Source of the DNA: Gammaproteobacteria bacterium
GTDB lineage: Bacteria > Pseudomonadota > Gammaproteobacteria > S012-40
Reading direction: 5' to 3'
Length of the DNA: 64,000 nt
NCBI GenBank assembly: GCA_029881255.1
Contig: JAOUMY010000001.1
Location: 248,001 to 312,000 of the forward strand
The first letter of the stretch is position 1, and each line of letters begins with the position of its first letter. Positions 11,054 to 11,365 of this stretch are shown here, one piece after another. Made by a program: the position numbers and the translations under genes. Below the pieces are notes generated by a model. That model saw only the letters and a list, made by a program, of their open reading frames with translations. It was not told the origin of the DNA and did no database searches.

Positions 11054-11365
11054 TGGTGCCCCCGGCAGGACTCGAACCTGCGACCAACGGATTCATGTAA
11101 TCTCACTGTTTCCAGTAAGCACGGACTATCTCACCACCCACAACATAACTTGTTTGGGTGTGGGACGCTCTAGCCTGTTATTAAGAACACTCAAGTTCTC
11201 AGGTAGTCTCTGCACCTTCCAGCGGTGTACCGCTGGCTTGGCTCAGGATTGCCTTCAGCCATACTGCTAAGGGTTCCCTGAATTCATCCCATTCATTTCA
11301 TGCCTTTCGGCATGAACGCACCTTTTTGATGAGTCCGCTGCTCTAACCAACTGAGCTACAGGGGC
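11054..11365 (-). tRNA. tRNA with CAU anticodon, split by a group I intron
   Basis: Read on the minus strand, exon 1 (11365-11329, 37 nt) begins GCCCCUG and ends CUCAU. Exon 2 (11093-11054) begins AAUCCG and ends with a genomically encoded CCA. Joined, they form a standard 77-nt cloverleaf: acceptor GCCCCUG/CGGGGGC, anticodon stem GCGGA/UCCGU, loop CUCAUAA, T-arm GCAGG-UUCGAGU-CCUGC, discriminator A. The anticodon is CAU. The body resembles tRNA-Ile2, whose C34 is converted to lysidine by TilS, more than initiator tRNA; elongator tRNA-Met cannot be excluded. The 235-nt interruption lies directly 3' of the anticodon. Confidence 0.9.
11094..11328 (-). ncRNA. Group I self-splicing intron in the tRNA anticodon loop
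   Basis: Group I hallmarks are present on the minus strand. The upstream exon ends in U and the intron ends in G. The last exon bases CAU can pair with GUG near the intron start (P1 with a U-G wobble). A perfect hairpin with GAAA loop (11297-11316) fits P2. CCUGAGCCAAGCC and AAGGUGCAGAGACUA (11204-11218) are the conserved P4-P7 core, AUAGUCC (11123-11129) is the 3' strand of P7, and another GAAA-loop hairpin (11102-11119) fits P9. The site, short IGS and core match the Azoarcus-type (IC3) tRNA-Ile(CAU) intron. No ORF lies inside. Confidence 0.92.

What the first reader, a model, noticed from the sequence alone, without database searches (positions are those of the whole stretch)
11054..11365. 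Azoarcus-like group I intron inside a CAU-anticodon tRNA gene
Seen: two exons that join into a perfect cloverleaf, an exon ending in U and an intron ending in G, a CAU/GUG P1, two GAAA-capped stems, and core sequences CCUGAGCCAAGCC and AAGGUGCAGAGACUA with a matching P7 strand. Known: the Azoarcus tRNA-Ile(CAU) intron has this site and this core. At 235 nt with no ORF this is a compact ribozyme in an essential tRNA. Automatic tRNA finders would miss or truncate the gene. Its occurrence in this gammaproteobacterial context looks uncommon.
Basis: partly seen in the sequence, partly recalled or inferred. Interest (0 to 1): 0.75.

Follow-up and report, generated by a model that had tools for sequence, protein, structure and literature searches.

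The report
tRNA intron with neighbouring homing-endonuclease gene
An essential bacterial tRNA gene is split by a small self-splicing RNA intron, and the gene next door encodes a DNA-cutting enzyme that in related bacteria turns up only beside this intron, so the two probably spread as partners.

Summary
On the minus strand, tRNA-Ile2(CAU) exons 11365-11329 and 11093-11054 flank a 235-nt ORF-less group I intron (RF00028, 78 bits); the joined exons fold as a tRNA. The genome has no second copy of this tRNA, has TilS, and uses AUA for about 20% of Ile codons in the window, so splicing must work. 'Azoarcus-like' holds only for the insertion site and P1: a covarying P7.1/P7.2-type extension points to subgroup IA, not Azoarcus IC3. 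'Uncommon' is wrong: at least 79 other sequenced species and 20 of 369 sampled class genomes carry it, as do Klebsiella jumbo phages. It sits in the same place in 14 species. In 369 genomes HNH occurred in 3, all among the 20 intron carriers (Fisher p=1.4e-4). Twelve intronless members of the family have neither intron nor HNH. Its closest phage relatives often abut phage tRNA genes. Best reading: an ORF-less tRNA intron and a free-standing HNH enzyme linked as in 'collaborative homing', previously described in phages, here in bacterial chromosomes. Cleavage and splicing are inferred, not shown.

The parts
11329..11365 (-). 5' exon of tRNA-Ile2(CAU), tRNA positions 1-36
   Evidence: sequence and ARAGORN on joined exons; 37/37 identical to intronless tRNA-Ile genes of relatives G007-G009
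11094..11328 (-). group I intron, 235 nt, no ORF
   Evidence: RF00028 78.2 bits; covariation over 29 relatives; fold z -4.9
11054..11093 (-). 3' exon of tRNA-Ile2(CAU), with encoded CCA
11319..11321 (-). GUG of the internal guide sequence, pairs with exon CAU (P1)
   Evidence: read from sequence
11204..11208 (-). P7 5' strand GACUA
   Evidence: invariant in 28 aligned introns
11124..11128 (-). P7 3' strand UAGUC
   Evidence: invariant in 28 aligned introns
11174..11203 (-). P7.1/P7.2-type extension between P7 5' strand and P3 3' strand (IA-type feature)
   Evidence: 34-nt insert relative to RF00028; helices 9 and 10 covary
11366..11434 (.). spacer between divergent tRNA and HNH genes, presumably holding both promoters
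   Evidence: position only; promoters not tested
11435..11827 (+). free-standing HNH endonuclease gene, 130 aa, candidate homing endonuclease partner
   Evidence: PF01844 above cut-off, PHROG HNH families, model pLDDT 88.9 with HNH fold matches, intron linkage
12023..13879 (-). rpoD-like sigma factor gene, conserved upstream neighbour that marks the locus in most carriers and in intronless relatives
   Evidence: ORF and tblastn synteny

Best explanation
[quoted passage not shown] Shown: intron anatomy, conserved RNA structure, single-copy tRNA, TilS in the genome, intronless empty sites in the family, and repeated linkage of HNH with the intron. Inferred: after transcription the intron self-splices with GTP (P1 = CAU/GUG, omega-G), giving mature tRNA-Ile2 that TilS converts to read AUA. 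The HNH enzyme cuts intronless tRNA-Ile2 genes at or near the anticodon loop; repair copies in the intron and, when the repair tract reaches far enough, the HNH gene. The intron then splits the target and protects the host chromosome. This is the collaborative-homing arrangement known from phages. Phages that carry the same intron in their own tRNA-Ile2 gene are a plausible vehicle. Separate confidences: intron in a functional tRNA gene about 0.97; HNH as a mobility partner of the intron about 0.6.
For: Intron. No second tRNA-Ile2. TilS. AUA = 200 of 986 Ile codons in 27 long window ORFs. HNH: Pfam/PHROG, 46 invariant columns including the HNH and Cys residues, third-codon-position bias, HNH fold. 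Linkage: HNH-first searches found G000, G048, G320 among 369 class genomes and G777 in a 57-genome order; all four have the intron next door. In the same 369 genomes 20 carry the intron: 3/20 versus 0/349, p=1.4e-4, or 2.5e-3 without G000. Same place and orientation, 70-243 bp upstream, in the intact cases measured, 14 species in all, plus decayed copies in L063, L076 and L061. Mobility: 12 family members have intronless tRNA-Ile (48, 50) and no HNH; rpoD places G000 inside a supported clade with 7 of them. Phages: same intron in the tRNA-Ile2 of phiKp_21 and Muenster and of viral contig L218; the closest viral HNH relatives lie in phage tRNA clusters, several directly abutting a tRNA.
Against: No cleavage or splicing was measured. 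Most carriers have the intron without HNH (17 of 20). The window's exon 1 has the acceptor stem GCCCCTG of its own relatives, whereas every other carrier listed has a GGG- type; one-step co-transfer from the HNH side should have brought donor exon 1, so either the donor was an unsampled near relative or the two parts arrived separately. Phage relatives of the HNH abut several tRNA types, not only CAU. HNH and intron trees are too poorly resolved to test co-descent. Linkage samples are small and not corrected for phylogeny.
Confidence: 0.6

Rival explanations
1. An ordinary group I intron in tRNA-Ile2, inherited and occasionally transferred; the HNH gene is an unrelated selfish gene that uses the rpoD/tRNA gap or tRNA genes in general as a safe spot.
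For: Most intron carriers lack HNH; phage relatives of the HNH abut Arg, Lys and other tRNAs; intron clades partly follow host groups.
Against: HNH absent from 349 of 349 class genomes without the intron pattern and from 12 of 12 intronless family members; four of four HNH-first finds sit beside the intron in one orientation.
Confidence: 0.3
2. HNH turnover: the intron once carried its own endonuclease, lost it, and a free-standing HNH took over the niche later (the alternative proposed for such loci in PMC10448857). This can be true together with the best explanation; it concerns origin, not present action.
For: PMC10448857 text; HNH is scattered on the host tree, 10 changes for 10 rows.
Against: The introns measured at this site are 231-304 nt, too short to hold a nuclease gene.
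Confidence: 0.25
3. The locus is a dead relic and the cell uses another tRNA for AUA.
For: None found; the tRNA scan scored 150 of 230 candidates, so the tRNA list is incomplete.
Against: No other copy by exon BLAST, no tRNA-Ile(UAU) among tRNAs found, TilS present, heavy AUA use, conserved ribozyme core.
Confidence: 0.03

Closest known systems
Azoarcus BH72 tRNA-Ile(CAU) group I intron (IC3)
   Same: same tRNA, CAU/GUG P1, small, ORF-less; same insertion site (recalled, sequence not retrieved here)
   Different: lacks the P7.1/P7.2-type extension (recalled); a different subgroup
Group I introns in tRNA-Ile2 of Acidovorax and Burkholderia (PMC8450103)
   Same: same tRNA interrupted, missed by tRNA finders
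   Different: betaproteobacteria; the passage read does not give subgroup or neighbouring genes
Collaborative homing: F-CphI and the psbA intron of cyanophage S-PM2 (PMC6083498, PMC3984707)
   Same: ORF-less group I intron plus adjacent free-standing endonuclease; the S-PM2 psbA intron aligns with part of this intron (72% over about 97 nt)
   Different: phage, protein gene, Endo VII-type nuclease; cleavage was shown there
I-Ssp6803I and the tRNA-fMet intron of Synechocystis (Bonocora and Shub 2001, listed in PMC3984707)
   Same: endonuclease linked to an intron in a CAU tRNA
   Different: endonuclease encoded inside the intron; different nuclease family (recalled)
T4 SegB in the phage tRNA cluster (PMC2988022)
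   Same: free-standing endonuclease among tRNA genes
   Different: GIY-YIG family, no intron, phage

Membership tests
Group I intron (RF00028) | covariance-model score above gathering | tested here: met
   78.2 vs 50 bits
Group I intron (RF00028) | P3/P7 pseudoknotted core, 5' exon ends U, intron ends G | tested here: met
Group I intron (RF00028) | GTP-dependent self-splicing | not testable with these tools
   needs RNA
Subgroup IC3 (Azoarcus type) | no helices between P7 5' strand and P3 3' strand | tested here: not met
   34-nt insert, covarying helices 9 and 10; that IC3 lacks them is recalled
Subgroup IA (IA2) | P7.1/P7.2 extension | tested here: met
   the helices are stacked with a bulge rather than two clear hairpins
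Subgroup IA (IA2) | best score to the IA2 subtype model | not tested
   subtype models not available here
tRNA-Ile2 (lysidine tRNA) | CAU anticodon with C4-G69, C5-G68, distinct from the genome's fMet and elongator Met | tested here: met
   sequences; determinants recalled from E. coli work
tRNA-Ile2 (lysidine tRNA) | TilS encoded in the genome | tested here: met
   TIGR02432 166 bits
HNH homing endonuclease | HNH domain and fold with conserved motif residues | tested here: met
HNH homing endonuclease | site-specific cleavage of an intronless allele | not testable with these tools
   needs protein
Collaborative homing | ORF-less intron with an adjacent free-standing endonuclease gene | tested here: met
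Collaborative homing | endonuclease co-occurs with the intron | tested here: met
Collaborative homing | intron and endonuclease transferred together | tested here: inconclusive
   trees unresolved; native-type exon 1
Collaborative homing | endonuclease cuts the intron insertion site and the intron blocks cutting | not testable with these tools
   needs protein

The most novel reading that the evidence does not exclude
A collaborative-homing system in bacterial chromosomes, perhaps the first, in which an HNH enzyme of phage tRNA-cluster type targets the anticodon loop of an essential tRNA gene and spreads an ORF-less IA-type intron among gammaproteobacteria, with jumbo phages as carriers.
Probability: 0.45. 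Interest if true: 0.7.

Novelty: new variant of a known kind. Interest (0 to 1): 0.52.

Why it matters
ORF-less tRNA introns are scattered among bacteria with no obvious way to move. A linked endonuclease would explain their spread and gives a direct test: does the enzyme cut intronless tRNA-Ile2? It would take collaborative homing from phages into chromosomes, at an essential tRNA gene where the intron would also act as immunity against the nuclease. It also means that standard annotation misses an essential tRNA in many gammaproteobacteria and in some phages.

Tried and rejected
Second intact tRNA-Ile2 copy: none. Plasmid carriers of the intron: none; plasmid HNH hits are distant. Sequence match of the HNH family in the PDB: none, although fold matches to HNH nucleases exist at modest Z. 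Intron, HNH and rpoD trees for co-descent: too weakly supported to decide. HNH relics in the long rpoD-tRNA gaps of L033, L073, L074, L100, L123 and L130: none above the shuffled background. No P10 was evident by eye. No covariance model was built, because of its length.

Full report
Observation. The minus strand of 11365-11054 reads as a tRNA-Ile2(CAU) gene split after U36 by a 235-nt intron. The joined exons form a complete cloverleaf in ARAGORN. Rfam's group I model matches at 78.2 bits. ARAGORN alone misses the gene, and with introns allowed it miscalls it.

Is it functional? The genome (4.97 Mb, 99% complete) has one group I intron match. Its other CAU tRNAs are an elongator Met and an fMet. 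BLAST with the spliced tRNA finds full identity only in the two exon halves of this locus; the next best is 84%. TilS is present. AUA makes up 200 of 986 Ile codons in 27 long ORFs of the window. A dead locus is therefore very unlikely, though the tRNA scan did not score every candidate.

Ribozyme structure. Aligning 29 introns, including one from a phage, gives a consensus with P2, P3, P4, P5, P6, P6a, P7, P8, P9.0-like and P9 helices. Of 1899 pair cells 98.2% are standard and 34 of 67 pairs show two-sided changes; no shuffle reaches this. P7 itself never varies, so it is consistent but not tested by covariation. Between the 5' strand of P7 and the 3' strand of P3 lies an extra covarying helix pair (columns 154-162 with 207-221). 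PMC3428280 uses P7.1 and P7.2 to assign its intron to IA2, whereas the Azoarcus intron is IC3 (reference B38). So this intron shares the tRNA and P1 with Azoarcus but belongs to another subgroup. I did not retrieve the Azoarcus sequence; that part of the comparison rests on recall.

Distribution. A pattern built on the junction and core found 79 contigs of other sequenced species, nearly all labelled as gammaproteobacteria or proteobacteria; all read as tRNA-Ile(CAU) with the same junction, and most lie downstream of rpoD. In an even draw of 369 class genomes, 20 carry it. It is patchy but not rare. tRNA-Ile2 introns were already noted in Acidovorax and Burkholderia (PMC8450103).

The neighbour. 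70 bp upstream and divergent is a 130-aa HNH protein (11435-11827). The same gene lies between rpoD and the tRNA, divergent, 70-243 bp upstream, in the other intact cases measured; there are 14 species in all (G000, G048=L133, G320, G777, L059, L064, L071, L075, L081, L088, L108, L116, L120, L128). Decayed copies are in L063, L076 and L061. Thirteen aligned members share 46 invariant residues. Pairs differ mostly at third codon positions, for example 37/22/68 for G000 versus L128, so it is under purifying selection. The model (pLDDT 88.9) has an HNH fold over residues about 47-130; Z values of 4-5 are modest.

Linkage test. Because most cases were found through the intron, I also searched with HNH alone. 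In 369 class genomes it occurs in three, all among the 20 intron carriers: Fisher p=1.4e-4, or 2.5e-3 without the window's own genome. A fourth, G777, came from a 57-genome order and also has the intron next door. In the window's family, 12 other genomes show intronless tRNA-Ile hits (11 read in full) and no HNH. These counts are not corrected for phylogeny, although the four HNH genomes come from four families.

Gain. In an rpoD tree the window's genome falls in a supported clade with seven intronless relatives, so a recent gain is simpler than many losses. G007-G009 have exon 1 identical to the window's and show the empty site. One fact does not fit one-step co-transfer: the window's exon 1 is of its own relatives' type, unlike every other carrier listed. 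Either the donor was a near, unsampled relative or the two parts came separately.

Phages. Klebsiella jumbo phages phiKp_21 and Muenster carry the same intron, unannotated, in their own tRNA-Ile2 (104 bits), with an HNH gene about 0.25 kb downstream. Viral contig L218 has it too, with a different HNH-like ORF overlapping the tRNA's 3' end. The nearest viral relatives of the HNH (47-58% identity) lie mostly in phage tRNA clusters; several directly abut or overlap the end of a tRNA, CAU in five distinct contigs (L176, L177, L184, L186, L189), otherwise Arg or Lys among others. So the enzyme belongs to a family associated with phage tRNA genes, which fits a target inside tRNA genes but does not prove it.

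Mechanism. Collaborative homing means that a free-standing endonuclease cuts the site where an ORF-less intron sits, the intron protects its own copy, and repair spreads the pair (PMC6083498, PMC3984707). PMC10448857 lists T3/T7-like phages, a cyanophage and ICP1 as examples, all phages. The present locus has the same parts in a bacterial chromosome. I put 0.6 on this; the main rival is that the HNH is a tRNA-associated selfish gene whose link to the intron is incidental.

Verdict. The intron alone is a new member of a known kind. The intron-HNH pair is a new variant of a known kind, with moderate interest, and can be tested directly with purified protein. The literature search covered only an open-access library, so a prior report of this pair elsewhere cannot be excluded.

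Noticed in passing
L140:3001-3312 (Klebsiella phage Muenster) and L139 (phiKp_21): Unannotated tRNA-Ile2(CAU) gene split by the same intron family in jumbo phages.
   Followed up: yes
L046 (G078) and L048 (G006, window's family): RF00028 matches followed by a tmRNA-like 3' end (CCGCCGCCTCCACCA); look like group I introns in tmRNA genes.
   Followed up: no
L037 (G023), near 1501-1740: A P7.1-type intron of the same look in what reads as a tRNA-Lys(CUU) gene at the same loop position.
   Followed up: no
L047 (G058) and L049 (G044): Group I introns in CAU tRNA genes that seem inserted after U33 instead of U36 and lack the P7.1 extension.
   Followed up: no
L056 (G013:C149) near 1501-1775: Only the 3' part of the intron and the 3' exon, with unrelated DNA upstream; may be the edge of an island integrated at tRNA-Ile.
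   Followed up: partly
L218:886-1372: Viral contig with the intron has a second, distantly related HNH-like ORF convergent with and overlapping the 3' end of the tRNA.
   Followed up: partly
L081 (labelled 'Halobacteria archaeon'): Contig carries bacterial rpoD, intron and HNH; probably a mislabelled or mixed MAG.
   Followed up: no
L189:3483-3855: Phage tRNA cluster with a permuted tmRNA next to an HNH of this family.
   Followed up: no
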